Assembly: GCF_040183065.1 (NCBI RefSeq)
Contig: NC_091120.1
Span: forward strand, 16,758,708 to 16,822,707
Length of the DNA stretch: 64,000 nt
Direction of reading: 5' to 3'
DNA from: Periplaneta americana
Taxonomy: Eukaryota; Arthropoda; Insecta; Blattodea; Blattidae
Shown: positions 1 to 64,000 of the stretch, piece after piece
Layout: every line of letters starts with the position of its first letter
Numbering within the stretch: the first letter of the stretch is position 1
Translations under genes and position numbers: made by a program
Notes under the pieces: model-generated
What the model saw: the letters and a program-made list of their open reading frames with translations, nothing else
Databases searched by the model: none
What the model was told of the DNA's origin: nothing

Positions 1-2140
1 ATTTTGCCGGCCTCTCCCGTCCAAACGCAGGAGGATAGAGAGTTGTCCTTTATACTGGAGATAGAGTTCGACGAGCTGTATTCAACGCACTCATCGGCTT
101 TGTTGTCACTTCACGTAGTGAGGAGTTTTGGCGGCAAGAACGTCGGCGGAAGGGTGGTCTAAACCCTTCCCCTTTTTTTCTCGAAAATCAGAAAGTGTTC
201 GCGATTGCCATTTTGATGCTATCGTGTAAGAAGCAAGTCAAGGGGGAATACAGGGCCGCATCCCGTTCCTCGGTATGGCCATTATTTCAGGAATTAGAGA
301 CTCAAATATTACAGGTACCCAAACATTAAGGCTAGAAAAAAGTGCGGCGGATTTGCCGGATATTAGCGGTGATTACTAGATAAGGTGCGAGGATGCTACA
401 GTTAAAAGGGCGGGCCTCTGAGTCGTTTCGTTCTCCTTGTGTAGAAAAAAGTCTGTTTTGGAAGGGCAAAATGACCATTTTTTGAAATTTTGCCGGCCTC
501 TCCCGTCCAAACGCAGGAGGATAGAGAGTTGTCCTTTATACTGGAGATAGAGTTCGACGAGCTGTATTCAACGCACTCATCGGCTTTGTTGTCACTACAC
601 GTAGTGCGGAGTTATGGCGGCAAGAAGGTCGGCGGAAGGGTGGTCTAAACCCTTCCCCTTTTTTTCTCGAAAATCAGGAAGTGTTCGCGATTGCCATTTT
701 GATGCTATCGTGTAAGAAGCAAGTCAAGGGGGTTTACAGGGCCGCATCCCGTTCCTCGGTATGGCCATTATTTCAGGAATTAGAGACTCAAATATTTCAG
801 GTACCCAAAAATTAAGGCTAGAAAAAAGTGCGGCGGATTTGCCGGATATTAGCGGTGATTACTAGATAAGGTGCGAGGATGCTACAGTTAAAAGGGCGGG
901 CCTCTGAGTCGCTTCGTTCTCCTTGTGTAGAAAAAAGTCTGTTTTGGAAGGGCAAAATGACCATTTTTTGAAATTTTGCCGGCCTCTCCCGTCCAAACGC
1001 AGGAGGATATAGAGTTGTCCTTAATACTGGAGATAGAGTTCGACGATCTGTATTCAACGCACTCATCGGCTTTGTTGTCCCTACACGTAGTGCGGAGTTA
1101 TGGCGGCAAGAAGGTCGGCGGAAGGGTGGTCTAAACCCTTCCCCTTTTTTTCTCGAAAATCAGAAAGTATTCGCGATTGCCATTTTGATGCTAACGTGTA
1201 AGAAGCAAGTCAAGGGGGTATACAGGGCCGCATCCCGTTCCTCGGTATGGCCATTATTTCAGGAATTAGAGACTCAAATATTTCAGGTACCCAAAAATTA
1301 AGGCTAGAAAAAAGTGCGGGGGATTTGCCGGATATTAGCGGTGATTACTAGATAAGGTGCGAGGATGCTACAGTTAAAAGGGCGGGCCTCTGAGTCGCTT
1401 CGTTCTCCTTGTGTAGAAAAAAGTCTGTTTTGGAAGGGCAAAATGACCTTTTTTGAAATTTTGCCGGCCTCTCCCGTCCAAACGCAGGAGGATAGAGAGT
1501 TGTCCTTTATACTGGAGATAGAGTTCGACGAGCTGTATTCAACGCACTCATCGGCTTTGTTGTCACTACACGTAGTGCGGAGTTATGGCGGCAAGAAGGT
1601 CGGCGGAAGGGTGGTCTAAACCCTTCCCCTTTTTTTCTCGAAAATCAGAAAGTGTTCGCGATTGCCATTTTGATGCTATCGTGTAAGAAGCAAGTCAAGG
1701 GGGTATACAGGGCCGCGTCCCGTTCCTCGGTATTGCCATTATTTCAGGAATTAGAGACTCAAATATTTCAGGTACCCAAAAATTAAGGCTAGAAAAAAGT
1801 GCGGCGGATTTGCCGGATATTAGCGGTGATTACTAGATAAGGTGCGAGGATGCTACAGTTAAAAGGGCGGGCCTCTGAGTCGCTTCGTTCTCCTTGTGTA
1901 GAAAAAAGTCTGTTTTGGAAGGGCAAAATGACCATTTTTTGAAATTTTGCCGGCCTCTCCCGTCCAAACGCAGGAGGATAGAGAGTTGTCCTTTATACTG
2001 GAGACAGAGTTCGACGAGCTGTATTCAACGCACTCATCGGCTTTGTTGTCACTACACGTAGTGCGGAGTTATGGCGGCAAGAAGGTCGGGGGAAGGGTGG
2101 TATTAACCCTTCCCCTTTTTTTCTCGAAAATCAGAAAGTG
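1..2140 (+). repeat. Array segment repeated 8.7 kb downstream (copy 1)
   Basis: Rare monomer variants in this stretch recur in the same order exactly 8,724 bp later: CACTTCACGTAGTGAGG near 108, the GATATAGAGTTGTCCTTAATA monomer near 1,005, CGGGGGAAGGGTGGTATTAA near 2,087. The match ends near 2,140, where this copy reads TTCGTGATTGCC and the other reads TTCGCGATTGCC. The window starts inside the segment, so its true left end is not visible. Confidence 0.8.
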
Positions 2141-5100
2141 TTCGTGATTGCCATTTTGATGCTATCGTGTAAGAAGCAAGGCAAGGGGGAATACAGGGCC
2201 GCATCCCGTTCCTCGGTATGGCCATTATTTCAGGAATTAGAGACTCAAATATTTCAGGTACCCAAAAATTAAGGCTAGAAAAAAGTGCGGCTGATTTGCC
2301 GGATATTAGCGGTGATTACTAGATAAGGTGCGAGGATGCTACAGTTAAAAGGGCGGGCCTCTGAGTCGCTTCGTTCTCCTTGTGTAGAAAAAAGTCTGTT
2401 TTGGAAGGGCAAAATGACCATTTTTTGAAATTTTGCCGGCCTCTCCCGTCCAAACGCAGGAGGATAGAGAGTTGTCCTTTATACTGGAGATAGAGTTCGA
2501 CGAGCTGTATTCAACGCACTCATCGGCTTTGTTGTCACTACACGTAGTGCGGAGTTATGGCGGCAAGAATGTCGGCGGAAGGGTGGTCTAAACCCTTCCC
2601 CTTTTTTTCTCGAAAATCAGAAAGTGTTCGCGATTGCCATTTTGATGCTATCGTGTAAGAAGCAAGTCAAGGGGGAATACAGGGCCGCATCCCGTTCCTC
2701 GGTATGGCCATTATTTCAGGAATTAGAGACTCAAATATTTCAGGTACCCAAAAATTAAGGCTAGAAAAAAGTGCGGCGGATTTGCCGGATATTAGCGGTG
2801 ATTACTAGATAAGGTGCGAGGATGCTACAGTTAAAAGGGCGGGCCTCTGAGTCGCTTCGTTCTCCTTGTGTAGAAAAAAGTCTGTTTTGGAAGGGCAAAA
2901 TGACCATTTTTTGAAATTTTGCCGGCCTCTCCCGTCCAAACGCAGGAGGATAGAGAGTTGTCCTTTATACTGGAGATAGAGTTCGACGAGCTGTATTCAA
3001 CGCACTCATCGGCTTTGTTGTCACTACACGTAGTGCGGAGTTATGGCGGCAAGAAGGTCGGCGGAAGGGTGGTCTAAACCCTTCCCCTTTTTTTCTCGAA
3101 AATCAGAAAGTGTTCGCGATTGCCATTTTGATGCTATCGTGTAAGAAGCAAATCAAGGGGGTATACAGGGCCGCGACCCGTGCCTCGGTATTGCCATTAT
3201 TTCAGGAATTAGAGACTCAAATATTTCAGGTACCCAAAAATTAAGGCTAGAAAAAAGTGCGGCGGATTTGCCGGATATTAGCGGTGATTACTAGATAAGG
3301 TGCGAGGATGCTACTGTTAAAAGGGCGGGCCTCTGAGTCGCTTCGTTCTCCTTGTGTAGAAAAAAGTCTGTTTTGGAAGGGCAAAATGACCATTTTTTTT
3401 TAAATTTTGCCGGCCTCTCCCGTCCAAACGCAGGAGGATAGAGAGTTGTCCTTTATACTGGAGATAGAGTTCGACGAGCTGTATTCAACGCACTCATCGG
3501 CTTTGTTGTCACTACACGTAGTGCGGAGTTATGGCGGCAAGAAGGTCGGCGGAAGGGTGGTCTAAACCCTTCCCCTTTTTTTCTCGAAAATCAGAAAGTG
3601 TTCGCGATTGCCATTTTGATGCTATCGTGTAAGAAGCAAGTCAAGGGGGTATACAGGGCCGCATCCCGTTCCTCGGTATGGCCATTATTTCAGGAATTAG
3701 AGACTCAAATATTTCAGGTACCCAAAAATTAAGGCTAGAAAAATGTGCGGCGGATTTGCCGGATATTAGCGGTGATTACTAGATAAGGTGCGAGGATGCT
3801 CCAGTTAAAAGGGCGGGCCTCTGAGTCGCTTCGTTCTCCTTGTGTAGAAAAAAGTCTGTTTTGGAAGGGCAAAATGACCATTTTTTGAAATTTTGCCGGC
3901 CTCTCCCGTCCAAACGCAGGAGGATAGAGAGTTCTCCTTTATACTGGAGAGAGAGTTCGACGAGCTGTATTCAACACACTCATCGGCGTTGTTGTCACTA
4001 CACGTAGTGCGGAGTTATGGCGGCAAGAAGGTCGGCGGAAGGGTGGTCTAAACCCTTCCCCTTTTTTTCTCGAAAATCAGAAAGTGTTCGCGATTGCCAT
4101 TTTGATGCTATCGTGTAAGAAGCAAGTCAAGGGGGAATACAGGGCCGCATCCCGTTCCTCGGTATGGCCATTATTTCAGGAATTAGAGACTCAAATATTT
4201 CAGGTACCCAAAAATTAAGGCTAGAAAAAAGTGCGGCGGATTTGCCGGATATTAGCGGTGATTACTAGATAAGGTGCGAGGATGCTACAGTTAAAAGGGC
4301 GGGCCTCTGAGTCGTTTCGTTCTCCTTGTGTAGAAAAAAGTCTGTTTTGGAAGGGCAAAATGACCATTTTTTGAAATTTTGCCGGCCTCTCCCGTCCAAA
4401 CGCAGGAGGATAGAGAGTTGTCCTTTATACTGGAGATAGAGTTCGACGAGCTGTATTCAACGCACTCATCGGCTTTGTTGTCACTACACGTAGTGCGGAG
4501 TTATGGCGGCAAGAAGGTCGGCGGAAGGGTGGTCTAAACCCTTCCCCTTTTTTTCTCGAAAATCAGAAAGTGTTCGCGATTGCCATTTTGATGCTATCGT
4601 GTAAGAAGCAAGTCAAGGGGGTATACAGGGCCGCGTCCCGTTCCTCGGTATTGCCATTATTTCAGGAATTAGAGACTCAAATATTTCAGGTACCCAAAAA
4701 TTAAGGCTAGAAAAAAGTGCGGCGGATTTGCCGGATATTAGCGGTGATTACTAGATAAGGTGCGAGGATGCTACAGTTAAAAGGGCGGGCCTCTGAGTCG
4801 CTTCGTTCTCCTTGTGTAGAAAAAAGTCTGTTTTGGAAGGGCAAAATGACCATTTTTTGAAATTTTGCCGGCCTCTCCCGTCCAAACGCAGGAGGATAGA
4901 GAGTTGTCCTTTATACTGGAGATAGAGTTCGACGAGCTGTATTCAACGCACTCATCGGCTTTGTTGTCACTACACGTAGTGCGGAGTTATGGCGGCAAGA
5001 AGGTCGGCGGAAGGGTGGTCTAAACCCTTCCCCTTTTTTTCTCGAAAATCAGAAAGTGTTCGCGATTGCCATTTTGATGCTATCGTGTAAGAAGCAAGTC

Positions 5101-6239
5101 AAGGGGGTATACAGGGCCGCATCCCGTTCCTCGGTATGGCCATTATTTCAGGAATTAGTGACTCAAATATTTCAGGTACCCAAAAATTAAGGCTAGAAAA
5201 AAGTGCGGCGGATTTGCCGGATATTAGCGGTGCTTACTAGATAAGGTGCGAGGATGCTATAGTTAAAAGGGCGGGCCTCTGAGTCGCTTCGTTCTCCTTG
5301 TGTAGAAATAAGTCTGTTTTGGAAGGGCAAAATGACCATTTTTTGAAATTTTGCCGGCCTCTCCCGTCCAAACGCAGGAGGATAGAGAGTTGTCCTTTAT
5401 ACTGGAGATAGAGTTCGACGAGCTGTATTCAACGCACTCATCGGCTTTGTTGTCACTACACGTAGTGCGGAGTTATGGCGGCAAGAAGGTCCCCTTTTTT
5501 TCTCGAAAATCAGAAAGTGTTCGCGATTGCCATTTTGATGCTATCGTGTAAGAAGCAAGTCAAGGGGGTATACAGGGCCGCATCCCGTTCCTCGGTATGG
5601 CCATTATTTCAGGAATTAGAGACTCAAATATTTCAGGTACCCAAAAATTAAGGCTAGAAAAAAGTGCGGCGGATTTGCCGGATATTAGCGGTGATTACTA
5701 GATAAGGTGCAAGGATGCTACAGTTAAAAGGGCGGGCCTCTGAGTCGCTTCGTTCTCCTTGTGTAGAAAAAAGTCTGTTTTGGAAGGGCAAAATGACCAT
5801 TTTTTGAAATTTTGCCGGCCTCTCCCGTCCAAACGCAGGAGGATAGAGAGTTGTCCTTTATACTGGAGATAGAGTTCGACGAGCTGTATTCAACGCACTC
5901 ATCGGCTTTGTTGTCACTTCACGTAGTGAGGAGTTTTGGCGGCAAGAACGTCGGCGGAAGGGTGGTCTAAACCCTTCCCCTTTTTTTCTCGAAAATCAGA
6001 AAGTGTTCGCGATTGCCATTTTGATGCTATCGTGTAAGAAGCAAGTCAAGGGGGAATACAGGGCCGCATCCCGTTCCTCGGTATGGCCATTATTTCAGGA
6101 ATTAGAGACTCAAATATTACAGGTACCCAAACATTAAGGCTAGAAAAAAGTGCGGCGGATTTTCCGGATATTAGCGGTGATTACTAGATAAGGTGCGAGG
6201 ATGCTACAGTTAAAAGGGCGGGCCTCTGAGTCGTTTCGT

Positions 6240-8388
6240 TCTCCTTGTGTAGAAAAAAGTCTGTTTTGGAAGGGCAAAATGACCATTTTTTTAAATTTTG
6301 CCGGCCTCTCCCGTCCAAACGCAGGAGGATAGAGAGTTGTCCTTTATACTGGCGATAGAGTTCACCGAGCTGTATTCAACGCACTCATCGGCTTTGTTGT
6401 CACTACACGTAGTGCGGAGTTATGGCGGAAAGAAGGTCGGCGGAAGGGTGGTCTAAACCCTTCCCCTTTTTTTCTCGAAAATCAGAAAGTGTTCGCGATT
6501 GCCATTTTGATGCTATCGTGTAAGAAGCAAGTCAAGGGGGAATACAGGGCCGCATCCCGTTCCTCGGTATGGCCATTATTTCAGGAATTAGAGACTCAAA
6601 TATTTCAGGTACCCAAAAATTAAGGCTAGAAAAAAGTGCGGCGGATTTGCCGGATATTAGCGGTGATTACTAGATAAGGTGCGAGGATGCTACAGTTAAA
6701 AGGGCGGGCCTCTGAGTCGCTTCGTTCTCCTTGTGTAGAAAAAAGTCTGTTTTGGAAGGGCAAAATGACCATTTTTTGACATTTTGCCGGCCTCTCCCGT
6801 CCAAACGCAGGAGGATAGAGAGTTGTCCTTTATACTGGAGATAGAGTTCGACGAGCTGTATTCAACGCACTCATCGGCTTTGTTGTCACTACACGTAGTG
6901 CGGAGTTATGGCGGCAAGAAGGTCGGCGGAAGAGTGGTCTAAACCCTTCCCCTTTTTTTCTCGAAAATCAGGAAGTGTTCGCGATTGCCATTTTGATGCT
7001 ATCGTGTAAGAAGCAAGTCAAGGGGGTTTACAGGGCCGCATCCCGTTCCTCGGTATGGCCATTATTTCAGGAATTAGAGACTCAAATATTTCAGGTACCC
7101 AAAAATTAAGGCTAGAAAAAAGTGCGGCGGATTTGCCGGATATTAGCGGTGATTACTAGATAAGGTGCGAGGATGCTACAGTTAAAAGGGCGGGCCTCTG
7201 AGTCGCTTCGTTCTCCTTGTGTAGAAAAAAGTCTGTTTTGGAAGGGCAAAATGACCATTTTTTTAAATTTTGCCGGCCTCTCCCGTCCAAACGCAGGAGG
7301 ATATAGAGTTGTCCTTAATACTGGAGATAGAGTTCGACGATCTGTATTCAACGCACTCATCGGCTTTGTTGTCCCTACACGTAGTGCGGAGTTATGGCGG
7401 CAAGAAGGTCGGCGGAAGGGTGGTCTAAACCCTTCCCCTTTTTTTCTCGAAAATCAGAAAGTGTTCGCGATTGCCATTTTGATGCTATCGTGTAAGAAGC
7501 AAGTCAAGGGGGTATACAGGGCCGCATCCCGTTCCACGGTATGGCCATTATTTCAGGAATTAGAGACTCAAATATTTCAGGTACCCAAAAATTAAGGCTA
7601 GAAAAAAGTGCGGGGGATTTGCCGGATATTAGCGGTGATTACTAGATAAGGTGCGAGGATGCTACAGTTAAAAGGGCGGGCCTCTGAGTCACTTCGTTCT
7701 CCTTGTGTAGAAAAAAGTCTGTTTTGGAAGGGCAAAATGACCATTTTTTTAAATTTTGCCGGCCTCTCCCGTCCAAACGCAGGAGGATAGAGAGTTGTCC
7801 TTTATACTGGCGATAGAGTTCACCGAGCTGTATTCAACGCACTCATCGGCTTTGTTGTCACTACACGTAGTGCGGAGTTATGGCGGAAAGAAGGTCGGCG
7901 GAAGGGTGGTCTAAACCCTTCCCCTTTTTTTCTCGAAAATCAGAAAGTGTTCGCGATTGCCATTTTGATGCTATCGTGTAAGAAGCAAGTCAAGGGGGAA
8001 TACAGGGCCGCATCCCGTTCCTCGGTATGGCCATTATTTCAGGAATTAGAGACTCAAATATTTCAGGTACCCAAAAATTAAGGCTAGAAAAAAGTGCGGC
8101 GGATTTGCCGGATATTAGCGGTGATTACTAGATAAGGTGCGAGGATGCTACAGTTAAAAGGGCGGGCCTCTGAGTCGCTTCGTTCTCCTTGTGTAGAAAA
8201 AAGTCTGTTTTGGAAGGGCAAAATGACCATTTTTTGACATTTTGCCGGCCTCTCCCGTCCAAACGCAGGAGGATAGAGAGTTGTCCTTTATACTGGAGAT
8301 AGAGTTCGACGAGCTGTATTCAACGCACTCATCGGCTTTGTTGTCACTACACGTAGTGCGGAGTTATGGCGGCAAGAAGGTCGGCGGA
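6240..8388 (+). repeat. Three-monomer (1,458-bp) local duplication in the left array
   Basis: The rare variants GGCGATAGAGTTCACCGAG (about 6,352 and 7,810) and TTTTTTGACATTTTGCC (about 6,772 and 8,230) recur 1,458 bp apart. The matching stretch runs from about 6,240 to 6,930 and from 7,698 to 8,388. Outside it the two copies differ (GAGTCGTTTCG against GAGTCACTTCG upstream; GAAGAGTGG against GAAGGGTGG downstream). A three-monomer spacing recurs elsewhere in both arms. Confidence 0.7.
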
Positions 8389-8724
8389 AGGGTGGTCTAA
8401 ACCCTTCCCCTTTTTTTCTCGAAAATCAGAAAGTGTTCGCGATTGCCATTTTGATGCTATCGTGTAAGAAGCAAGTCAAGGGGGTATACAGGGCCGCATC
8501 CCGTTCCTCGGTATGGCCATTATTTCAGGAATTAGAGACTCAAATATTTCAGGTACCCAAAAATTAAGGCTAGAAAAAAGTGCGGCGGATTTGCCGGATA
8601 TTAGCGGTGATTACTAGATAAGGTGCGAGGATGCTACAGTTAAAAGGGCGGGCCTCTGAGTCGCTTCGTTCTCCTTGTGTAGAAAAAAGTCTGTTTTGGA
8701 AGGGCAAAATGACCATTTTTTGAA

Positions 8725-10864
8725 ATTTTGCCGGCCTCTCCCGTCCAAACGCAGGAGGATAGAGAGTTGTCCTTTATACTGGAGATAGAGTTCGACGAGC
8801 TGTATTCAACGCACTCATCGGCTTTGTTGTCACTTCACGTAGTGAGGAGTTTTGGCGGCAAGAACGTCGGCGGAAGGGTGGTCTAAACCCTTCCCCTTTT
8901 TTTCTCGAAAATCAGAAAGTGTTCGCGATTGCCATTTTGATGCTATCGTGTAAGAAGCAAGTCAAGGGGGAATACAGGGCCGCATCCCGTTCCTCGGTAT
9001 GGCCATTATTTCAGGAATTAGAGACTCAAATATTACAGGTACCCAAACATTAAGGCTAGAAAAAAGTGCGGCGGATTTGCCGGATATTAGCGGTGATTAC
9101 TAGATAAGGTGCGAGGATGCTACAGTTAAAAGGGCGGGCCTCTGAGTCGTTTCGTTCTCCTTGTGTAGAAAAAAGTCTGTTTTGGAAGGGCAAAATGACC
9201 ATTTTTTGAAATTTTGCCGGCCTCTCCCGTCCAAACGCAGGAGGATAGAGAGTTGTCCTTTATACTGGAGATAGAGTTCGACGAGCTGTATTCAACGCAC
9301 TCATCGGCTTTGTTGTCACTACACGTAGTGCGGAGTTATGGCGGCAAGAAGGTCGGCGGAAGGGTGGTCTAAACCCTTCCCCTTTTTTTCTCGAAAATCA
9401 GGAAGTGTTCGCGATTGCCATTTTGATGCTATCGTGTAAGAAGCAAGTCAAGGGGGTTTACAGGGCCGCATCCCGTTCCTCGGTATGGCCATTATTTCAG
9501 GAATTAGAGACTCAAATATTTCAGGTACCCAAAAATTAAGGCTAGAAAAAAGTGCGGCGGATTTGCCGGATATTAGCGGTGATTACTAGATAAGGTGCGA
9601 GGATGCTACAGTTAAAAGGGCGGGCCTCTGAGTCGCTTCGTTCTCCTTGTGTAGAAAAAAGTCTGTTTTGGAAGGGCAAAATGACCATTTTTTGAAATTT
9701 TGCCGGCCTCTCCCGTCCAAACGCAGGAGGATATAGAGTTGTCCTTAATACTGGAGATAGAGTTCGACGATCTGTATTCAACGCACTCATCGGCTTTGTT
9801 GTCCCTACACGTAGTGCGGAGTTATGGCGGCAAGAAGGTCGGCGGAAGGGTGGTCTAAACCCTTCCCCTTTTTTTCTCGAAAATCAGAAAGTATTCGCGA
9901 TTGCCATTTTGATGCTAACGTGTAAGAAGCAAGTCAAGGGGGTATACAGGGCCGCATCCCGTTCCTCGGTATGGCCATTATTTCAGGAATTAGAGACTCA
10001 AATATTTCAGGTACCCAAAAATTAAGGCTAGAAAAAAGTGCGGGGGATTTGCCGGATATTAGCGGTGATTACTAGATAAGGTGCGAGGATGCTACAGTTA
10101 AAAGGGCGGGCCTCTGAGTCGCTTCGTTCTCCTTGTGTAGAAAAAAGTCTGTTTTGGAAGGGCAAAATGACCTTTTTTGAAATTTTGCCGGCCTCTCCCG
10201 TCCAAACGCAGGAGGATAGAGAGTTGTCCTTTATACTGGAGATAGAGTTCGACGAGCTGTATTCAACGCACTCATCGGCTTTGTTGTCACTACACGTAGT
10301 GCGGAGTTATGGCGGCAAGAAGGTCGGCGGAAGGGTGGTCTAAACCCTTCCCCTTTTTTTCTCGAAAATCAGAAAGTGTTCGCGATTGCCATTTTGATGC
10401 TATCGTGTAAGAAGCAAGTCAAGGGGGTATACAGGGCCGCGTCCCGTTCCTCGGTATTGCCATTATTTCAGGAATTAGAGACTCAAATATTTCAGGTACC
10501 CAAAAATTAAGGCTAGAAAAAAGTGCGGCGGATTTGCCGGATATTAGCGGTGATTACTAGATAAGGTGCGAGGATGCTACAGTTAAAAGGGCGGGCCTCT
10601 GAGTCGCTTCGTTCTCCTTGTGTAGAAAAAAGTCTGTTTTGGAAGGGCAAAATGACCATTTTTTGAAATTTTGCCGGCCTCTCCCGTCCAAACGCAGGAG
10701 GATAGAGAGTTGTCCTTTATACTGGAGATAGAGTTCGACGAGCTGTATTCAACGCACTCATCGGCTTTGTTGTCACTACACGTAGTGCGGAGTTATGGCG
10801 GCAAGAAGGTCGGGGGAAGGGTGGTATTAACCCTTCCCCTTTTTTTCTCGAAAATCAGAAAGTG
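8725..10864 (+). repeat. Array segment repeated from the window start (copy 2)
   Basis: Second copy of the 1-2,140 segment at a constant offset of 8,724 bp (18 monomers). It has the same diagnostic variants in the same order, including the CACTTCACGTAGTGAGG monomer near 8,832 and the TATTAACCC variant near 10,822. The offset is constant across more than four monomers, so this is one block duplication rather than chance sharing of variants. Confidence 0.8.
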
Positions 10865-10869
10865 TTCGC

Positions 10870-49603: not shown

Positions 49604-49679
49604 TATCTGCGTCTCATAAACCAGCTGTAGAGTGCTTGCTCAATGAATCGAAGGTTCTGAGTTCGGGCCTTGTTCAAGT
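49604..49679 (+). mobile_element. tRNA-like SINE remnant (right)
   Basis: Mirror copy of 33,610-33,685, here on the + strand. It carries the D-arm-like AGCTGTAGAGTGCTTGCT and the T-arm-like GGTTCTGAGTTCGGGCC, followed by TTGTTCAAG and an A/T-rich tail. The A-box and B-box fit is partial. Confidence 0.45.
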
Positions 49680-49683
49680 TTTC

Positions 49684-49939: not shown

Positions 49940-49998
49940 GATTGGTGGACAAGTATATTCCAACAAAAAGTCTTCCTTATCTGGACACTCCGAAATGA

Positions 49999-51834: not shown

Positions 51835-51939
51835 TCACGAGGACAGTGCTGCCAATATGACCACACCAGTCTGCGACATGAAGGGAACATCACTGTCAGG
51901 CACTCCAGCGACATACTGCCATCTACCCGAGGAATCAGC
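51835..51939 (-). pseudogene. Exon-like segment of 34 codons after a splice acceptor (right)
   Basis: Mirror copy of 31,350-31,454 on the - strand. The acceptor (CTGCAAACATAAGCAAAAGC on the + strand), the 34-codon frame and the TGA are all kept without a visible change. The intact frame in both arms is weak support for function, since the arms are nearly identical overall. Confidence 0.35.
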
Positions 51940-52558: not shown

Positions 52559-53000
52559 CTACGAAAAAGTGCAAGGGATTTGATCGATTTTATTCGTGAA
52601 TATTAGTGAATATGCGGGGATGCTACAGTGAAAAGCGCGGGTCTCTGAGCACCTTCGTTCTACTCGTGTAGAGAAAATTCTGTTTTTGGAAGCCCAAAAT
52701 GACCACTTTTTTTAAATATCACGGTCCCTACCGTCCATATGCCTTGGGACAGAGAGTTGTCTCTTATACTAAAGATAGACTTCGTGAAGATCTATTCGCT
52801 GCATTTATCAGATTTCTTGTCACTACGTATACGGCGGAGATAAGGCGCCGAGAATGTAGGCGCAATAGAAGTTTATAAGCCTTGGTGTTTTTTCTCGATA
52901 ATCAGTTTGTGTTCGAGATTCCCATTTTCATGGTATCGTGTCCGAAGTAAGTCAAGGGGGAACAGAATACATTCCGTTCCTCGATATGGCCATTATTTCC
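52559..53000 (+). repeat. Single inverted, highly diverged satellite monomer (right)
   Basis: Mirror of 30,309-30,750, oriented + against the - oriented array that follows. It is nearly identical to the left copy (one difference near 52,852, GTAGGCGC here against the left GCGCATAC read in reverse), although both are far from the array consensus. The divergence therefore predates the duplication that made the two arms. Confidence 0.8.
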
Positions 53001-53019
53001 GGAAATAATGGCCATAACG
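52982..53019. repeat. Palindromic junction where satellite orientation flips (right)
   Basis: ATGGCCATTATTTCC meets GGAAATAATGGCCAT with the axis at 53,000/53,001. It is the same junction as at 30,308/30,309, so it existed before the arms were duplicated. Confidence 0.9.
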
Positions 53020-55983
53020 AGGAACGGGATGCGGCCCTGTATTCCACCTTGACTTACTTCTTACACGATAGCATCGAATTGGCAATCGCGAACACTTTCT
53101 GATTTTCGAGACATTCGAGACATTCTGGCGGCCATAACTCCGCAGTACTTGTGGTCACAACAAAGCCGATGAGTGCGTTGAATACAGCTCGTCGACTTCT
53201 ATCTCCAGTATAAAGGACAACTTTCTATCCCCCTGCGTTTGGACGGGAGAGGCCGGCAAAATTTCCAAAAATGGTCATTTTGACCTTCCGAAACAGACTT
53301 TTCTCTACACAAGGAAAACAGCGGCTTAGAGGCCCGCCCTTTTAACTGTAGCATCCACGCATCTTCGCCAGTAATCACCGCAAAAATCCGGCAAATCCGC
53401 CGCACTTTTTTCTAGCCTTAATTTTTGGGTACCTGAAATATTTCAGCCTCTAATTCCGGAAATAATGGCCATAACGAGGAACGGGATGCGGCCCTGTATT
53501 CCACCTTGACTTACTTCTTACACGATAGCATCGAATTGGCAATCGCGAACACTTTCTGATTTTCGAGAAAAAAAGGGGAAGGGTTTAAACCACCCTTCCG
53601 CCGACATTCTGGCGGCCATAACTCCGCAGTACTTGTGGTCACAACAAAGCCGATGAGTGCGTTGAATACAGCTCGTCGACCTCTATCTCCAGTATAAAGG
53701 ACAACTCTCTATCCCCCTGCGTTTGGACGGGAGAGGCCGGCAAAATTTCAAAAAATGGTCATTTTGACCTTCCAAAACAGACTTTTCTCTACACTAGGAA
53801 AACGAAGCGGCTCAGAGGCCCGCCCTTTTAACTGTAGCATCCCCGCATCTTCGCCAGTAATCACCGCAAAAATCCGACAAATCCGCCGCACTTTTTTCTA
53901 GCCTTAATTTTTGGGTACCTGAAATATTTCAGCCTCTAATTCCGGAAATAATGGCCATAACGAGGAACGGGATGCGGCCCTGTATTCCACCTTGACTTAC
54001 TTCTTACACGATAGCATCGAATTGGCAATTGCGAACACTTTCTGATTTTCGAGAAAAAAAGGGGAACCACCCTTCCGCCGACGTTCTGGCGGCCATAACT
54101 CCGCAGTACTTGTGGTCACAACAAAGCCGATGAGTGCGTTGAATACAGCTCGTCGAACTCTATCTCCAGTATAAAGGACAACTTTCTATCCCCCTGCGTT
54201 TGGACGGGAGAGGCCGGCAAAATTTCCAAAAATGGTCATTTTGACCTTCCAAAACAGACTTTACTCTACACAAGGAAAACAGCGGCTCAGAGGCCCGCCC
54301 TTTTAACTGTAGCATCCACCCATCTTCGCCAGTAATCACCGCAAAAATCCGGCAAATCCGCCGCACTTTTTTCTAGCCTTAATTTTTGGGTACCTGAAAT
54401 ATTTCAGCCTCTAATTCCGGAAATAATGGCCATAACGAGGAACGGGATGCGGCCCTGTATTCCTCCTTGACTTACTTCTTACACGATAGCATCGAATTGG
54501 CAATCGCGAACACTTTCTGATTTCCGCCGACATTCTGGCGGCCATAACTCCGCAGTACTTGTGGTCACAACAAACCCGATGAGAGCGTTGAATACAGCTC
54601 GTCGACCTCTATCTCCAGTATAAAGGACAACTCTCTATCCCCCTGCGTTTGGACGGGAGAGGCCGGCAAAATTTCCAAAAATGGTCATTTTGACCTTCCA
54701 AAACAGACTTTTCTCTACACAAGGAAAACGAAGCGGATCAGAGGCCCGCCCTTTTTAACTGTAGCATCCGGGCATCTTTGCCAGTAATCACCGCAAAAAT
54801 CCGGCAAATCCGCCGCACTTTTTTCTAGCCTTAATTTTTGGGTACCTGATATATTTCAGCCTCTAATTCCGGAAATAATGGCCATAAAGAGGAACGGGAT
54901 GCGGCCCTGCATTCCACCTGGACTTACTTCTTACACGATACCATCGAATTGGCAATCGCGAACACTTTCTGATTTTCGAGAAAAAAAGGGGAAGGGTTTA
55001 AACCACCCTTCCGCCGACGTTCTGGCGGCCATAACTCAGCAGTACTTGTGGTCACAACAAAGCCGATGAGTGCGTTGAATACAGCTCGTCGAACCCTATC
55101 TCCAGTATAAAGGACAACTTTCTATCCCCCTGCGTTTGGACGGGAGAGGCCGGCAAAATTTCCAAAAATGGTCATTTTGACCTTCCAAAACAGACTTTTC
55201 TCTACACAAGGAAACAGCGGCTCAGAGGCCCGCCCTTTTAACTGTAGCATCCACGCATCTTCGCCAGTAATCACCGCAAAAATCCGGCAAATCCGCCGCA
55301 CTTTTTTCTAGCCTTAATTTTTGGGTACCTGAAATATTTCAGTCTCTAATTCCGGAAATAATGGCCATAACGAAGAACGGGATGCGGCCCTGTATTCCAC
55401 CTTGACTTACTTCTTACACGATAGCATCGAATTGGCAATCGCGAACACTTTCTGATTTTCGAGAAAAAAAGGGGAAGGGTTTAAACCACCCTTCCGCCGA
55501 CGTTCTGGCGGCCATAACTCCGCAGTACTTGTGGTCACAACAAAGCCGATGAGTGCGTTGAATACAGCTCGTGGAACTCTATCTCCAGTATAAAGGACAA
55601 CTCTCTATCCCCCTGCGTTTGGACGGGAGAGGCCGGCAAAATTTCAAAAAATGGTCATTTTGACTTCCAAAACAGACTTTTCTCTACACAAGGAAAACGA
55701 AGCGGCTCAGAGGCCCGCCCTTTTAACTGTAGCATCCCCGCATCTTTGCCAGTAATCACCGCAAAAATCCGGCAAATCCGCCGCACTTTTTTCTAGCCTT
55801 AATTTTTGGGTACCTGAAATATTTCAGCCTCTAATTCCGGAAATAATGGCCATAAAGAGGAACGGGATGCGGCCCTGTATTCCACCTGGACTTACTTCTT
55901 ACACGATAGCATCGAATTGGCGATCGCGAACACTTTCTGATTTTCGAGAAAAAAAGGGGAAGGACCACCCTTCCGCCGACGTT
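53001..55983 (-). repeat. 486-bp satellite, subfamily B, inner edge of right array
   Basis: About six B-type monomers (TACTTGTGGTCACAAC, GAATTGGCAATCGCG, CATCTTCGCCAGTAATC), against about 2.5 on the left. Several carry different small deletions at the hairpin (near 53,107, 54,062, 54,522 and 55,962). The first unit has the 9-bp tandem duplication CGAGACATT CGAGACATT at about 53,107. The B-to-A switch is near 55,984, roughly 60 bp later in monomer phase than on the left, so the two switches are not simple mirror images. Confidence 0.85.
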
Positions 55984-58900
55984 CTTGCCGCCATAACTCC
56001 GCACTACGTGTAGTGACAACAAAGCCGATGAGTGCGTTGAATACAGCTCGTCGAACTCTATCTCCAGTATAAAGGACAACTCTCTATCCTCCTGCGTTTG
56101 GACGGGAGAGGCCGGCAAAATTTCAAAAAATGGTCATTTTGCCCTTCCAAAACAGACTTTTTTCTACACAAGGAGAACGAAGCGACTCAGAGGCCCGCCC
56201 CTTTAACTGTAGCATCCTACACCTTATCTAGTAATCACCGCTAATATCCGGCAAATCCGCCGCACTTTTTTCTAGCCTTAATTTTTGGGTACCTGAAATA
56301 TTTGAGTCTCTAATTCCTGAAATAATGGCCATACCGAGGAACGGGATGCGGCCCTGTATTCCCCCTTGACTTGCTTCTTACACGATAGCATCAAAATGGC
56401 AATCGCGAACACTTTCTGATTTTCGAGAAAAAAAGGGGACCACCCTTCCGCCGACATTCTTGCCGCCATAACTCCGCACTACGTGTAGTGACAACAAAGC
56501 CGATGAGTGCGTTGAATACAGCTCGTCGAACTCTATCTCCAGTATAAAGGACAACTCTCTATCCTCCTGCGTTTGGACGGGAGAGGCCGGCAAAATTTCA
56601 AAAAATGGTCATTTTGCCCTTCCAAAACAGACTTTTTTCTACACAAGGAGAACGAAGCGACTCAGAGGCCCGCCCTTTTAACTGTAGCATCCTCGCACCT
56701 TATCTAGTAATCACCGCTAATATCCGGCAAATCTGCCGCACTTTTTTCTAGCCTTAATTTTTGGGTACCTGAAATATTTGAGTCTCTAATTCCTGAAATA
56801 ATGGCCATACCGAGGAACGGGATGCGGCCCTGTATTCCCCCTTGACTTGCTTCTTACACGATAGCATCAAAATGGCAATCGCGAACACTTTCTGATTTTC
56901 GAGAAAAAAAGGGGAAGGGTTTAGACCACCCTTCCGCCGACCTTCTTGCCGCCATAACTCCGCACTACGTGTAGTGACAACAAAGCCGATGAGTGCGTTG
57001 AATACAGCTCGTCGAACTCTATCTCCAGTATCAAGGACAACTCTCTATCCTCCTGCGTTTGGACGGGAGAGGCCGGCAAAATTTCAAAAAATGGTCATTT
57101 TGCCCTTCCAAAACAGACTTTTTTCTACACAAGGAGAACGAAGCGACTCAGAGGCCCGCCCTTGTAACTGTAGCATCCTCGCACCTTATCTAGTAATCAC
57201 CGCTAATATCCGGCAAATCCGCCGCACTTTTTTCTAGCCTTAATTTTTGGGTACCTGAAATATTTGAGTCTCTAATTCCTGAAATAATGGCCATACCGAG
57301 GAACGGGATGCGGCCCTGTATTCCCCCTTGACTTGCTTCTTACACGATGGCATCAAAATGGCAATCGCGAACAATTTCTGATTTTCGAGAAAAAAAGGGG
57401 AAGGGTTTAGACCACCCTTCCGCCGACGTTCTTGCCGCCATAACTCCGCACTACGTGTAGAGACAACAAAGCCGATGAGTGCGTTGAATACAGCTCGTCG
57501 ATCTCTATCTCCAGTATAAAGGACAACTCTCTATCCTCCTGCGTTTGGACGGGAGAGGCCGGCAAAATTTCAAAAAATGGTCATTTTGCCCTTCCAAAAC
57601 AGACTTTTTTCTACACAAGGAGAACGAAACGAATCAAAGGCCCGCCCTTTTAACTGTAGCATCCTCGCACCTTATCTAGTAATCACCGCTAATATCCGGC
57701 AAATCCGCCGCACTTTTTTCTAGCCTTAATTTTTGGGTACCTGAAATATTTGAGTCTCTAATTCCTGAAATAATGGCCATACCGAGGAACGGGATGCGGC
57801 CCTGTATACCCCCTTGACTTGCTTCTTACACGATAGCATCAAAATGGCAATCGCGAACACTTTCTGATTTTCGAGAAAAAAAGGGGAAGGGTTTAGACCA
57901 CCCTTCCGCCGACCTTCTTGCCGCCATAACTCCGCACTACGTGTAGTGACAAGAAAGCCGATGAGTGCGTTGAATACAGCTCGTCGAACTCTATCTCCAG
58001 TATAAAGGACAACTCTCTATCCTCCTGCGTTTGGACGGGAGAGGCCGGCAAAATTTCAAAAAATGGTCATTTTGCCCTTCCAAAACAGACTTTTTTCTAC
58101 ACAAGGAGAACGAAGCGACTCAGAGGCCCGCCCTTTTAACTGTAGCATCCTCGCACCTTATCTAGTAATCACCGCTAATATCCGGCAAATCCGCCGCACT
58201 TTTTTCTAGCCTTAATTTTTGGGTACCTGAAATATTTGAGTCTCTAATTCCTGAAATAATGGCCATACCGAGGAACGGGATGCGGCCCTGTATTCCCCCT
58301 TGACTTGCTTCTTACACGATGGCATCAAAATGGCAATCGCGAAAACTTTCTGATTTTCGAGAAAAAAAGGGGAAGGTAAACCCTTCCGCCGACTTTCTTG
58401 CCGCCATAACTCCGCACTACGTGTAGTGACAACAAAGCCGATGAGTGCGTTGAATACAGCTCGTCGAACTCTATCTCCAGTATAAAGGACAACTCTCTAT
58501 CCTCCTGCTTTTGGACGGGAGAGGCCGGCAAAATTTCAAAAAATGGTCATTTTGCCCTTCCAAAACAGACTTTTTTCTACACAAGGAGAACGAAGCGACT
58601 CAGAGGCCCGCCCTTTTAACTGTAGCATCCTCGCACCTTATCTAGTAATCACCGCTAATATCCGGCAAATGCGCCGCACTTTTTTCTAGCCTTAATTTTT
58701 GGGTACCTGAAATATTTGAGTCTCTAATTCCTGAAATAATGGCCATACCGAGGAACGGGATGCGGCCCTGTATTCCCCCTTGACTTGCTTCTTACACGAT
58801 AGCATCAAAATGGCAATCGCGAACACTTTCTGATTTTCGAGAAAAAAAGGGGAAGGGTTTAGACCACCCTTCCGCCGACCTTCTTGCCGCCATAACTCCG

Positions 58901-61900
58901 CACTACGTGTAGTGACAACAAAGCCGATGAGTGCGTTGAATACAGCTCGTCGAACTCTATCTCCAGTATAAAGGACAACTCTCTATCCTCCTGCGTTTGG
59001 ACGGGAGAGGCCGGCAAAATTTCAAAAAATGGTCATTTTGCCCTTCCAAAACAGACTTTTTTCTACACAAGGAGAACGAAGCGACTCAGTGGCCCGCCCT
59101 TTTAACTGTAGCATCCTCGCACCTTATCTAGTAATCACCGCTAATATCCGGCAAATCCGCCGCACCTTTTCTAGCCTTAATTTTTGGGTACCTGAAATAT
59201 TTGAGTCTCTAATTCCTGAAATAATGGCCATACCGAGGAACGGGATGCGGCCCTGTATACCCCCTTGACTTGCTTCTTACACGATAGCATCAAAATGGCA
59301 ATCGCGAACACTCTCTGATTTTCGAGAAAAAAAGGGGAAGGGTTAAGACCACCCTTCCGCCGACCTTCTTGCCGCCATAACTCCGCACTACGTGTAGTGA
59401 CAACAAAGCCGATGAGTGCGTTGAATACAGCTCGTCGAACTCTATCTCCAGTATAAAGGACAACTGTCTATCCTCCTGCGTTTGGACGGGAGAGGCCGGC
59501 AAAATTTCAAAAAATGGTCATTTTGCCCTTCCAAAACAGACTTTTTTCTACACAAGGAGAACGAAGCGACTCAGAGGCCCGCCCTTTTAACTGTAGCATC
59601 CTCGCACCTTATCTAGTAATCACCGCTAATATCCGGCAAATCTGCCGCACTTTTTTCTAGCCTTAATTTTTGGGTACCTGAAATATTTGAGTCTCTAATT
59701 CCTGAAATAATGGCCATACCGAGGAACGGGATGCGGCCCTGTATTCCCCCTTGACTTGCTTCTTACACGATAGCATCAAAATGGCAATCGCGAACACTTT
59801 CTGATTTTCGAGAAAAAAAGGGGAAGGGTTTAGACCACCCTTCCGCCGACCTTCTTGCCGCCATAACTCCGCACTACGTGTAGTGACAACAAAGCCGATG
59901 AGTGCGTTGAATACAGCTCGTCGAACTCTATCTCCAGTATAAAGGACAACTCTCTATCCTCCTGCGTTTGGACGGGAGAGGCCGGCAAAATTTCAAAAAA
60001 TGGTCATTTTGCCCTTCCAAAACAGACTTTTTTCTACACAAGGAGAACGAAACGAATCAAAGGCCCGCCCTTTTAACTGTAGCATCCTCGCACCTTATCT
60101 AGTAATCACCGCTAATATCCGGCAAATCCGCCGCACTTTTTTCTAGCCTTAATTTTTGGGTACCTGAAATATTTGAGTCTCTAATTCCTGAAATAATGGC
60201 CATACCGAGGAACGGGATGCGGCCCTGTATACCCCCTTGACTTGCTTCTTACACGATAGCATCAAAATGGCAATCGCGAACACTTTCTGATTTTCGAGAA
60301 AAAAAGGGGAAGGGTTTAGACCACCCTTCCGCCGACCTTCTTGCCGCCATAACTCCGCACTACGTGTAGTGACAAGAAAGCCGATGAGTGCGTTGAATAC
60401 AGCTCGTCGAACTCTATCTCCAGTATAAAGGACAACTCTCTATCCTCCTGCGTTTGGACGGGAGAGGCCGGCAAAATTTCAAAAAATGGTCATTTTGCCC
60501 TTCCAAAACAGACTTTTTTCTACACAAGGAGAACGAAGCGACTCACAGGCCCGCCCTTTTAACTGTAGCATCCTCGCACCTAATCTAGTAATCACCGCTA
60601 ATATCCGGCAAATCCGCCGCACTTTTTTCTAGCCTTAATTTTTGGGTACCTGAAATATTTGAGTCTCTAATTCCTGAAATAATGGCCATACCGAGGAACG
60701 GGATGCGGCCCTGTATTCCCCCTTGACTTGCTTCTTACACGATGGCATCAAAATGGCAATCGCGAAAACTTTCTGATTTTCGAGAAAAAAAGGGGAAGGG
60801 TTTAGACCACCCTTCCGCCGACTTTCTTGCCGCCATAACTCCGCACTACGTGTAGTGACAACAAAGCCGATGAGTGCGTTGAATACAGCTCGTCGAACTC
60901 TATCTCCAGTATAAAGGACAACTCTCTATCCTCCTGCTTTTGGACGGGAGAGGCCGGCAAAATTTCAAAAAATGGTCATTTTGCCCTTCCAAAACAGACT
61001 TTTTTCTACACAAGGAGAACGAAGCGACTCAGAGGCCCGCCCTTTTAACTGTAGCATCCTCGCACCTTATCTAGTAATCACCGCTAATATCCGGCAAATC
61101 CGACGCACTTTTTTCTAGCCTTAATTTTTGGGTACCTGAAATATTTGAGTCTCTAATTCCTGAAATAATGGCCATACCGAGGAACGGGATGCGGCCCTGT
61201 ATTCCCCCTTGACTTGCTTCTTACACGATAGCATCAAAATGGCAATCGCGAACACTTTCTGATTTTCGAGAAAAAAAGGGGAAGGGTTTAGACCACCCTT
61301 CCGCCGACCTTCTTGCCGCCATAACTCCGCACTACGTGTAGTGACAACAAAGCCGATGAGTGCGTTGAATACAGCTCGTCGAACTCTATCTCCAGTATAA
61401 AGGACAACTCTCTATCCTCCTGCGTTTGGACGGGAGAGGCCGGCAAAATTTCAAAAAATGGTCATTTTGCCCTTCCAAAACAGACTTTTTTCTACACAAG
61501 GAGAACGAAACGAATCAAAGGCCCGCCCTTTTAACTGTAGCATCCTCGCACCTTATCTAGTAATCACCGCTAATATCCGGCAAATCCGCCGCACTTTTTT
61601 CTAGCCTTAATTTTTGGGTACCTGAAATATTTGAGTCTCTAATTCCTGAAATAATGGCCATACCGAGGAACGGGATGCGGCCCTGTATACCCCCTTGACT
61701 TGCTTCTTACACGATAGCATCAAAATGGCAATCGCGAACACTTTCTGATTTTCGAGAAAAAAAGGGGAAGGGTTTAGACCACCCTTCCGCCGACCTTCTT
61801 GCCGCCATAACTCCGCACTACGTGTAGTGACAAGAAAGCCGATGAGTGCGTTGAATACAGCTCGTCGAACTCTATCTCCAGTATAAAGGACAACTCTCTA

Positions 61901-64000
61901 TCCTCCTGCGTTTGGACGGGAGAGGCCGGCAAAATTTCAAAAAATGGTCATTTTGCCCTTCCAAAACAGACTTTTTTCTACACAAGGAGAACGAAGCGAC
62001 TCAGAGGCCCGCCCTTTTAACTGTAGCATCCTCGCACCTTATCTAGTAATCACCGCTAATATCCGGCAAATCCGCCGCACTTTTTTCTAGCCTTAATTTT
62101 TGGGTACCTGAAATATTTGAGTCTCTAATTCCTGAAATAATGGCCATACCGAGGAACGGGATGCGGCCCTGTATTCCCCCTTGACTTGCTTCTTACACGA
62201 TGGCATCAAAATGGCAATCGCGAAAACTTTCTGATTTTCGAGAAAAAAAGGGGAAGGGTTTAGACCACCCTTCCGCCGACTTTCTTGCCGCCATAACTCC
62301 GCACTACGTGTAGTGACAACAAAGCCGATGAGTGCGTTGAATACAGCTCGTCGAACTCTATCTCCAGTATAAAGGACAACTCTCTATCCTCCTGCTTTTG
62401 GACGGGAGAGGCCGGCAAAATTTAAAAAAATGGTCATTTTGCCCTTCCAAAACAGACTTTTTTCTACACAAGGAGAACGAAGCGACTCAGAGGCCCGCCC
62501 TTTTAACTGTAGCATCCTCGCACCTTATCTAGTAATCACCGCTAATATCCGGCAAATCCGCCGCACTTTTTTCTAGCCTTAATTTTTGGGTACCTGAAAT
62601 ATTTGAGTCTCTAATTCCTGAAATAATGGCCATACCGAGGAACGGGATGCGGCCCTGTATTCCCCCTTGACTTGCTTCTTACACGATAGCATCAAAATGG
62701 CAATCGCGAACACTTTCTGATTTTCGAGAAAAAAAGGGGAAGGGTTTAGACCACCCTTCCGCCGACCTTCTTGCCGCCATAACTCCGCACTACGTGTAGT
62801 GACAACAAAGCCGATGAGTGCGTTGAATACAGCTCGTCGAACTCTATCTCCAGTATAAAGGACAACTCTCTATCCTCCTGCGTTTGGACGGGAGAGGCCG
62901 GCAAAATTTCAAAAAATGGTCATTTTGCCCTTCCAAAACAGACTTTTTTCTACACAAGGAGAACGAAGCGACTCAGTGGCCCGCCCTTTTAACTGTAGCA
63001 TCCTCGCACCTTATCTAGTAATCACCGCTAATATCCGGCAAATCCGCCGCACCTTTTCTAGCCTTAATTTTTGGGTACCTGAAATATTTGAGTCTCTAAT
63101 TCCTGAAATAATGGCCATACCGAGGAACGGGATGCGGCCCTGTATACCCCCTTGACTTGCTTCTTACACGATAGCATCAAAATGGCAATCGCGAACACTT
63201 TCTGATTTTCGAGAAAAAAAGGGGAAGGGTTAAGACCACCCTTCCGCCGACCTTCTTGCCGCCATAACTCCGCACTACGTGTAGTGACAACAAAGCCGAT
63301 GAGTGCGTTGAATACAGCTCGTCGAACTCTATCTCCAGTATAAAGGACAACTGTCTATCCTCCTGCGTTTGGACGGGAGAGGCCGGCAAAATTTCAAAAA
63401 ATGGTCATTTTGCCCTTCCAAAACAGACTTTTTTCTACACAAGGAGAACGAAGCGACTCAGTGGCCCGCCCTTTTAACTGTAGCATCCTCGCACCTTATC
63501 TAGTAATCACCGCTAATATCCGGCAAATCCGCCGCACTTTTTTCTAGCCTTAATTTTTGGGTACCTGAAATATTTGAGTCTCTAATTCCTGAAATAATGG
63601 CCATACCGAGGAACGTTATGCGGCCCTGTATTCCCCCTTGACTTGCTTCTTACACGATAGCATCAAAATGGCAATCGCGAACACTTTCTGATTTTCGAGA
63701 AAAAAAGGGGAAGGGTTTAGACCACCCTTCCGCCGACCTTCTTGCCGCCATAACTCCGCACTACGTGTAGTGACAAGAAAGCCGATGAGTGCGTTGAATA
63801 CAGCTCGTCGAACTCTATCTCCAGTATAAAGGACAACTCTCTATCCTCCTGCGTTTGGACGGGAGAGGCCGGCAAAATTTCAAAAAATGGTCATTTTGCC
63901 CTTCCAAAACAGACTTTTTTCTACACAAGGAGAACGAAGTGACTCAGAGGCCCGCCCTTGTAACTGTAGCATCCTCGCACCTTATCTAGTAATCACCGCT
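55984..64000 (-). repeat. 486-bp satellite array, subfamily A, right arm
   Basis: About 16.5 A-type monomers running off the window edge, reverse-oriented relative to the left array. Variant markers here (GAAACGAATCAAAGG, CTGCTTTTGGACGG, GACAAGAAAGCCG, GATGGCATC) were not seen in the left array, and the left-array markers (AAAATGTCCATT, CTTCGGAAGG) were not seen here. The two arrays have therefore been homogenised separately, even though the low-copy arms beside them are nearly identical. Confidence 0.95.
57600..63450 (-). repeat. Higher-order repeats Z in right array (3-, 5- and 8-monomer spacing)
   Basis: AACGAATCAA variants start at 57,628, 60,051 and 61,509: spacing 2,423 bp (five monomers less a small deletion) and then 1,458 bp (three monomers). 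The TGCTTTTGGACG variants (about 58,505, 60,935 and 62,393) and GACAAGAAAGCC variants (about 57,949, 60,372 and 61,830) keep the same spacing. A larger block with GCCGCACCTTTTCTAGCC and GACAACTGTCTATCC recurs 3,887 bp apart (59,160 with 63,047; 59,460 with 63,347), which is eight monomers. Confidence 0.8.

What the first reader, a model, noticed from the sequence alone, without database searches (positions are those of the whole stretch)
1..64000. Giant nested palindrome with satellite-bearing arms and a 1.6-kb loop
Everything in the window is mirrored about a core at 39,363-40,944, with arms of at least 21-23 kb. The arms combine a 486-bp satellite, a flipped relict monomer, unique sequence, five other tandem repeats and A/T blocks in strict mirror order. 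Palindromes of this size are known from sex chromosomes and amplified regions, where gene conversion keeps arms alike. One built almost wholly of different satellites would be unusual, and may mark a centromere, a B or sex chromosome, or a fold-back amplification.
Basis: partly seen in the sequence, partly recalled or inferred. Interest (0 to 1): 0.82.

Follow-up and report, generated by a model that had tools for sequence, protein, structure and literature searches.

The report
Recurrent giant satellite palindromes in cockroach
In what is very probably the American cockroach genome, large mirror-image DNA blocks sit between two facing satellite arrays at many chromosomal places, and in most of the few copies compared the two sides of one block are more alike than the sides of different blocks.

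Summary
The mirror structure is real. The window is C4:16,758,708-16,822,707 of a 3.23-Gb, 91-scaffold genome whose statistics fit Periplaneta americana PAMFEO1_priV1. Two 486-bp satellite arrays, about 0.4 Mb together, face each other across a 22.7-kb nested palindrome. Outer arms differ at 8 of 4,521 aligned sites, A/T blocks match at 94.6%, and the 1.58-kb loop is asymmetric.

It is not a one-off. Searches of the same genome gave 41 loci with the arm or its edge, on 14 of 17 chromosomes and 2 unplaced scaffolds. Neighbouring edges within 40 kb faced inward 21 times, outward 0, tandem 3. At 8 of 8 outer ends fetched from four other loci, related 486-bp satellite again runs head-to-head into the palindrome. 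Own left and right ends are 97-99% alike at three of those four; different chromosomes differ by 7-14%. Arm-to-arm gene conversion is the favoured reading, with exceptions between two C4 loci.

Several loci per chromosome argue against a single centromere, a sex- or B-chromosome marker, or one amplification. The closest known kind is the Tribolium satellite "macro-dyad", which lacks this large complex centre. Function is untested.

The parts
1..30308 (+). 486-bp satellite array, left arm; continues leftward outside the window to between 16.55 and 16.56 Mb (probes)
30293..30324 (.). junction of array and relict monomer: perfect 32-bp palindrome centred at 30308/30309, inside it TTCCGGAA
   Evidence: read from sequence
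30309..30753 (-). relict 486-type monomer, inverted, about 76% identical to the array; outer edge of the arm in the family
30754..32640 (+). non-tandem part of left arm, no coding match found; related sequence at many loci
32641..34836 (+). left arm with 11/22-bp, 48-bp, 17/23-bp and 21-bp minisatellites
34837..36012 (+). 28-bp repeat array; a 201-base piece folds into hairpins (DNA z -7.67)
36071..38163 (+). long 21-bp minisatellite, left
38164..39363 (+). A/T-rich block, left (94.6% to the right one)
39364..40943 (+). asymmetric core (loop): 21-bp minisatellite plus A/T tail; match over query 1-1579 at C4:4,675,468-4,677,066, 77%
40944..42150 (-). A/T-rich block, right; the order core(+) then A/T(-) is shared with C4 4.68 Mb
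42158..46773 (-). long 21-bp minisatellite, right (longer than left)
47146..48452 (-). 28-bp repeat array, right
48453..52555 (-). right arm, mirror of the left arm
52556..53000 (+). relict monomer, right; palindromic junction centred at 53000/53001
53001..64000 (-). 486-bp satellite array, right arm; continues to between 16.993 and 16.996 Mb on C4 (probes)

Best explanation
The window holds one locus of a dispersed family of satellite/palindrome/satellite blocks in (very probably) Periplaneta americana. Each block has a central inverted repeat (relict satellite monomer, arm, hairpin minisatellites, A/T-rich loop), and satellite arrays face inward on both sides. SHOWN: the architecture here; inward-facing recurrence of the arm edge at many loci, and mirrored 28-bp arrays at 12 clusters; head-to-head satellites at 8 of 8 ends fetched from four other loci; greater likeness within a locus than between chromosomes at the loci compared. 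INFERRED: the palindrome is ancestral; its arms pair within a chromatid or between sisters and convert each other; arrays grow and turn over by unequal exchange or fold-back replication at a palindromic TTCCGGAA in the monomer, with the centre as a fixed inversion point; ectopic conversion or duplication spread it between loci. At chromosome scale it probably acts as structural or heterochromatic repeat rather than as a gene, either selfishly or by shaping chromatin.
For: Recurrence: two arm queries and an arm-edge pattern match on many chromosomes (the reversed-pattern control gave 0). Of neighbouring sites within 40 kb, 21 face inward, 0 outward, 3 are tandem; within 100 kb 23, 2 and 3. Among the 100 places listed of 2,228 matches to the 28-bp motif (control 0), I count 22 clusters: 12 in plus-then-minus order, 9 on one strand only, 1 mixed. 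Head-to-head 486-bp satellite lies outside the edge at 8 of 8 ends from 4 other loci.

Conversion: the window's arms differ at 8 of 4,521 sites, whereas matches on other chromosomes to the window's arm are 78-93% identical, short fragments apart. Own left against own right 700-base ends, about 600 of them satellite: C9 99.1% over 550, C8 98.7% over 699, C1 96.7% over 701. The same ends differ by 0.074-0.139 between chromosomes.

Ancestral centre: C4 4.68 Mb carries the same asymmetric core(+) followed at once by the A/T block(-), yet its left arm is 98% to the window's, less alike than the window's own arms. Bulk monomers of the two arms are mixed in mean distance: 0.0209 within left, 0.0190 within right, 0.0207 between. 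The first monomers inside both junctions share a variant that differs from the bulk.
Against: The two C4 loci do not follow the rule at their satellite ends: the window's left end is nearer to the left end of the 4.67-Mb locus (0.010) than to its own right end (0.026), and the 4.67-Mb left end is nearer to the window's left end (0.010) than to its own right end (0.041). The 4.67-Mb right arm matches the window's at 91% against 98% for its left. Nearest-neighbour monomers are mostly local (Lmid 91 of 119), so exchange between arms is not continuous. Independent re-formation of palindromes at an A/T-rich fold point is not excluded; loop letters of other loci were not read, and a shared loop in the same order is shown only for two loci of one chromosome. 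For C9, C8 and C1 the left-right comparison covers mainly satellite, not the arms. Of 52 merged sites inward pairs account for 34 and 18 had no partner among the scored matches, though supply opposite-strand markers for some of these. No function was tested.
Confidence: 0.6

Rival explanations
1. A giant foldback transposon: the arms are long terminal inverted repeats, and the satellites are tandem growth of the terminal repeat after insertion, starting from the inverted relict monomer.
For: Dispersed inverted pairs with shared edges; the relict monomer and the satellite are homologous; minisatellites inside long inverted repeats recall Drosophila FB and Galileo elements (recalled; Galileo papers seen only in a listing).
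Against: At 8 of 8 ends fetched the edge borders satellite, not unique DNA, so no target-site duplication could be found. No protein family above its cut-off in 10 reading frames, nine of the arm and one of the monomer. Satellite on both sides at every end fetched is hard to get from insertion alone.
Confidence: 0.18
2. Each palindrome formed separately and recently by a fold-back (U-turn) at an A/T-rich hairpin-prone centre, so arms are alike because they are young, without conversion.
For: Window arms and three other loci's ends are more alike within the locus than between chromosomes; hairpin-forming repeats near the centre; perfect 32-bp palindromes at both array junctions of the window.
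Against: Two loci on C4 share the same asymmetric loop, and 21 inward pairs and 12 clusters with mirrored 28-bp arrays would need the same fold order each time.
Confidence: 0.13
3. A (peri)centromere module: A/T core, inner inverted repeats and outer satellite in mirror order, as in fission yeast.
For: The same order of parts as that layout (recalled); Tribolium macro-dyads lie in putative centromeric regions (PMC13081366, passages).
Against: Several loci per chromosome, for example five on C9 from 122 to 171 Mb, which does not suit one centromere per chromosome. No CENP-A or cytology data.
Confidence: 0.07
4. Assembly artefact (missed-adapter or fold-back chimera).
For: Palindromes and satellites are classic trouble spots; read coverage could not be examined.
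Against: Arms differ by indels, by A/T-block changes and by a minisatellite twice as long on one side; longest exact inverted match is 1,292 bp; 260 kb without N; the same plan recurs at many loci.
Confidence: 0.02

Closest known systems
Tribolium macro-dyad symmetries (T. madens TmSat1/TmSat2; T. freemani, T. castaneum), PMC13081366, passages seen
   Same: Satellite arrays that switch orientation and form palindromes of tens of kb; conserved inversion sites where one opposing subunit is degenerate (23.5% or 10.7% diverged there; about 24% here).
   Different: Here the inversion site is a 22.7-kb complex palindrome with non-tandem arms, several minisatellites and an A/T loop, not one degenerate subunit; the repeat unit differs in length (about 110-bp units there, 486 bp here; sequences were not compared); loci are scattered over tens of Mb per chromosome rather than in megabase (peri)centromeric blocks; different insect order. 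The paper states that such symmetries were documented exclusively in Tribolium.
Primate Y-chromosome palindromes kept alike by gene conversion (recalled; ape sex-chromosome paper seen in a listing only)
   Same: Arms above 99% with a unique spacer.
   Different: No genes found in the arm frames tested; spread over many chromosomes; flanked by satellites.
Drosophila FB / Galileo foldback elements (recalled; listing only)
   Same: Dispersed long inverted repeats containing tandem repeats.
   Different: Span 14.6-36 kb for the pairs within 40 kb, no transposase found in the arm, no target-site duplication seen, flanked by satellite at every end fetched.
Fission yeast centromere layout (recalled)
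   Same: A/T-rich core, inner inverted repeats, outer repeats in opposite orientation.
   Different: Many loci per genome and several per chromosome; no centromere protein evidence.

Membership tests
Satellite macro-dyad symmetry (Tribolium type) | One satellite in two facing arrays of many kb | tested here: met
   this locus; facing satellite at 8 of 8 ends of 4 other loci, array lengths there not measured
Satellite macro-dyad symmetry (Tribolium type) | Conserved inversion site with a degenerate opposing subunit | tested here: met
   relict monomer at the edge; but the site also holds a 22.7-kb palindrome not described for the Tribolium type in the passages read
Satellite macro-dyad symmetry (Tribolium type) | Located in (peri)centromeric satellite blocks | tested here: inconclusive
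   top-scored loci lie nearer chromosome ends, several per chromosome; centromere positions unknown
Gene-conversion palindrome | Own arms more alike than paralogous arms | tested here: inconclusive
   met for the window's arms and for mainly satellite ends of C9, C8, C1; not met between the two C4 loci at their ends and for the 4.67-Mb right arm
Foldback transposon | Long inverted repeats at dispersed sites | tested here: met
Foldback transposon | Element ends in unique DNA with a target-site duplication | tested here: not met
   8 of 8 ends fetched, plus both ends in the window, border satellite
Foldback transposon | Transposase, or related autonomous copy | tested here: inconclusive
   10 reading frames, two sub-cut-off hits only; interiors of other loci not read
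Regional centromere | One site per chromosome | tested here: not met
   up to 5 loci per chromosome
Regional centromere | CENP-A or kinetochore binding | not testable with these tools
   no chromatin data

The most novel reading that the evidence does not exclude
These palindromes are a chromosome-wide set of shape-defined modules: satellite sequence changes from chromosome to chromosome while the mirror layout with its hairpin and A/T centre is kept by conversion and copied between chromosomes. They would set up heterochromatin or centromere-competent chromatin, and by recombining between chromosomes they would produce the natural translocation rings known in this cockroach.
Probability: 0.13. 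Interest if true: 0.88.

Novelty: new variant of a known kind. Interest (0 to 1): 0.67.

Why it matters
Satellite macro-dyads were stated in March 2026 to be documented exclusively in Tribolium (PMC13081366, passage). A cockroach case with a 486-bp satellite, a complex centre and many dispersed loci suggests that mirror organisation of satellites can recur in distant insects. It also offers a natural set of replicate palindromes for measuring arm-to-arm conversion. [quoted passage not shown] dispersed homologous palindromes are a testable substrate for such exchanges (inference).

Tried and rejected
Ribosomal or other RNA palindrome: no Rfam family at gathering score in the window; at permissive E-value 25 hits in 28,800-42,200, all below gathering score, 21 of them in the 28-bp hairpin array. 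Coding content: 10 reading frames (nine of the arm, one of the monomer), eight with no Pfam match and two with weak matches below the cut-off (Gliadin 0.021, PH_LRR1 0.047). My early value of 91.5% for the arms, which would have argued against conversion, was an alignment artefact. The mafft matrix of ends misaligns C9 left and right (0.106) because of a shift within the tandem repeat; BLAST gives 99.1% over 550 bp. Other rows, such as C4 4.67 right, which has an internal rearrangement, may suffer in the same way. A genome-wide count of the 486-bp monomer by pattern did not complete, nor a search with the C1 satellite, so the total amount of this satellite is unknown.

Literature, listings unless said otherwise: '486 bp' with satellite terms gave one wheat paper; cockroach genome papers; foldback and giant transposons, 11 papers; satellite DNA with cockroach and Periplaneta gave three papers, none on this by its listing; palindrome with satellite array gave eight, none on a cockroach by title; centromere with central core and insect gave two reviews; macro-dyad with Tribolium terms, 12 of 139 listed; Periplaneta with heterochromatin and karyotype gave seven; satellitome with Blattodea or cockroach showed 6 of 1,089, none on this by listing; 'macro-dyad symmetries' with satellite gave two papers, one of which only cites the other. 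The PAMFEO1 genome paper has no occurrence of 'satellite' or 'tandem' in its main text; I read passages only. These searches cover open-licence PMC papers alone.
Full report
What was checked. The window is mirrored about 39,364-40,943, as reported. From the outside inwards each side has a 486-bp satellite array, an inverted relict monomer (about 76% to the array), a non-tandem arm, several minisatellites, a 28-bp repeat array (a 201-base piece folds as DNA with z -7.67, 0 of 200 shuffles as good), a long 21-bp array and an A/T-rich block. The loop is 1,580 bp. Arm letters from 30,313 to 34,840 align over 4,521 sites with 8 mismatches and internal gaps of 19 bases and 1 base. The two bins that cover most of the 28-bp part are 98.6% alike, and the A/T blocks match at 1,129 of 1,193 sites. 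The right long 21-bp array is 4.6 kb against 2.1 kb on the left.

Where it is. The window is C4:16,758,708-16,822,707 of a genome of 3,231,669,367 bases in 91 contigs. C4 begins with CCTAA repeats. Contigs C1 to C17 are 137.7 to 229.4 Mb long, the eighth largest 188.08 Mb. The Periplaneta americana paper gives 3.23 Gb, 17 chromosomes plus 74 unplaced contigs, scaffold N50 188.1 Mb and telomere AACCTAACCT (PMC12774602, passages). I take the organism to be that; it is an inference, but a strong one.

The whole locus. With gaps under 100 bp, plus-strand satellite fills 16,690,025-16,789,022 and minus-strand satellite 16,811,701-16,949,999. The stretches at 16.97-16.985 Mb are satellite throughout, and 600-base probes carry it to 16.993 Mb on the right and to 16.56 Mb on the left, not to 16.996 or 16.55 Mb. 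A second plus array was met at probes from 29.0 to 29.3 Mb, and a further copy of the central unit lies near 29.44 Mb: edge on the plus strand, A/T match and 28-bp repeats on the minus strand.

Monomers. I extracted 537 near-full-length monomers. Mean distance is 0.0209 in the left middle, 0.0190 in the right middle and 0.0207 between them, so the arms are not separable on average, though nearest neighbours are mostly local. The first three full monomers inside the left junction and the first six inside the right one are a different variant. Seven of these nine match a monomer of the C4 4.67-Mb locus at 95-99% and two at 90-91%; the outer left array matches it at 96% on average, the bulk of both arms at 91.5-92.7%. 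My inference is that a younger variant has replaced the middle of both arms in opposite orientation.

The family. The arm query 30,800-33,300 gave 53 matches, the edge query 43, and a 34-base edge pattern 101 with 0 for the reversed control. The first two score only the best 40 of 1,045 and 1,753 candidates, so counts are lower bounds; the pattern also picks up dispersed monomer-like copies. Merged, 21 neighbouring pairs within 40 kb face inward, 0 outward and 3 are tandem; within 100 kb 23, 2 and 3. I count 41 loci with the arm or its edge (some of them single, two of them the wide C7 pairs), 39 on 14 of 17 chromosomes and 2 on unplaced scaffolds. Of the 52 sites merged had no partner among those matches. 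The 28-bp motif has 2,228 matches (control 0); the 100 places listed form 22 clusters by my count, 12 in plus-then-minus order, 9 on one strand only, and a mixed one at C8 14.6 Mb. add inward pairs such as C1 228.57, C8 46.57, C9 67.62, C10 4.12 (57 kb wide) and C12 156.23 Mb.

Flanks of other loci. I fetched the two outer ends of four loci (C9 171.3, C8 25.3, C1 10.2, C4 4.67 Mb; 700 bases each, about 600 outside the edge). In 8 of 8, 486-bp satellite runs head-to-head into the palindrome edge, at about 84-93% to the window's monomer in the longer pieces. Own left against own right is 99.1% over 550, 98.7% over 699 and 96.7% over 701 for C9, C8 and C1; between chromosomes these ends differ by 0.074-0.139. 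The C4 loci are less tidy. The 4.67-Mb ends match each other at 90.5 to 97% by piece. The window's left end is nearer to the 4.67-Mb left end (0.010) than to its own right end (0.026). The fold-back palindrome around TTCCGGAA is kept, exactly or nearly, at the window, C4 4.67, C1 and C8 loci but not at C9 (read).

Ancestral centre. The loop query matches C4:4,675,468-4,677,066 over its full length at 77% on the plus strand, and the A/T block follows at once on the minus strand there (4,677,067, 85%), as in the window. No left A/T block of that quality was listed for that locus. The same asymmetric centre at two loci suggests that the palindrome is older than their separation. The window's arms (8 differences in 4,521) are more alike than the window and the 4.67-Mb left arm (98%). 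Arm-to-arm conversion is the simplest reading; conversion or copying between loci would explain the mixed C4 ends. The case rests on few loci and needs full arm trees.

Position on chromosomes. The 39 chromosomal loci lie at a median of 15.8 Mb from a chromosome end against 46.1 Mb expected (0 of 10,000 random placements as low). In 11 of 13 chromosomes with two or more loci all lie in one half (probability 2e-05 if sides were random). Both tests use mainly top-scored loci. Matches found later reach the interior, for example C9 67.6 Mb and partial ones at C12 44-60 Mb, so the end bias may be weaker for the wider family.

Interpretation. Multiple loci per chromosome make a single-centromere, sex-chromosome, B-chromosome or one-event amplification reading unlikely. 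A foldback transposon is possible, but no end with unique flanks was seen and no coding match was found in the arm frames tested. The closest description I found in print is the Tribolium macro-dyad (PMC13081366, passages), which shares facing satellites and a degenerate subunit at the inversion site but, in what I read, lacks a large complex centre. The link to ring multivalents of this cockroach (PMC5821447, passage) is my inference.

Noticed in passing
C4:28.9-29.44 Mb (probes L071-L074, L053, and L031): A second 486-bp array (96-99% to the window's monomer in probes) 12 Mb away on the same chromosome, with another copy of the central unit near 29.44 Mb.
   Followed up: partly
C39 (219 kb, unplaced; L032 = 1-6,000, L033 = 74,001-82,000): Both stretches sampled are minus-strand 486-bp satellite close to the bulk variant; some search hits repeat at 12.0-kb spacing, suggesting an internal duplication.
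   Followed up: no
window 12,755 and 16,121; C4:16,753,147 and 16,763,267: Phase breaks in the left array and hits exactly 10,120 bp apart suggest segment duplications within the array.
   Followed up: no
C7:168,659,486-168,756,249 and C7:188,532,809-188,597,323: Inward-facing edge pairs at 97 and 64 kb, much wider than the others; perhaps palindromes with large insertions, or chance pairs.
   Followed up: no
genome-wide, rows ending GATAGCATCAAAATGGGAA: Dispersed monomer-like copies on many chromosomes (for example C2, C7, C13), possibly a mobile source of the satellite.
   Followed up: no
C8:14,628,451-14,663,385: Cluster of 28-bp hairpin repeats with minus, plus and minus blocks, two of the minus blocks repeating at about 10-kb spacing: not a simple palindrome.
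   Followed up: no
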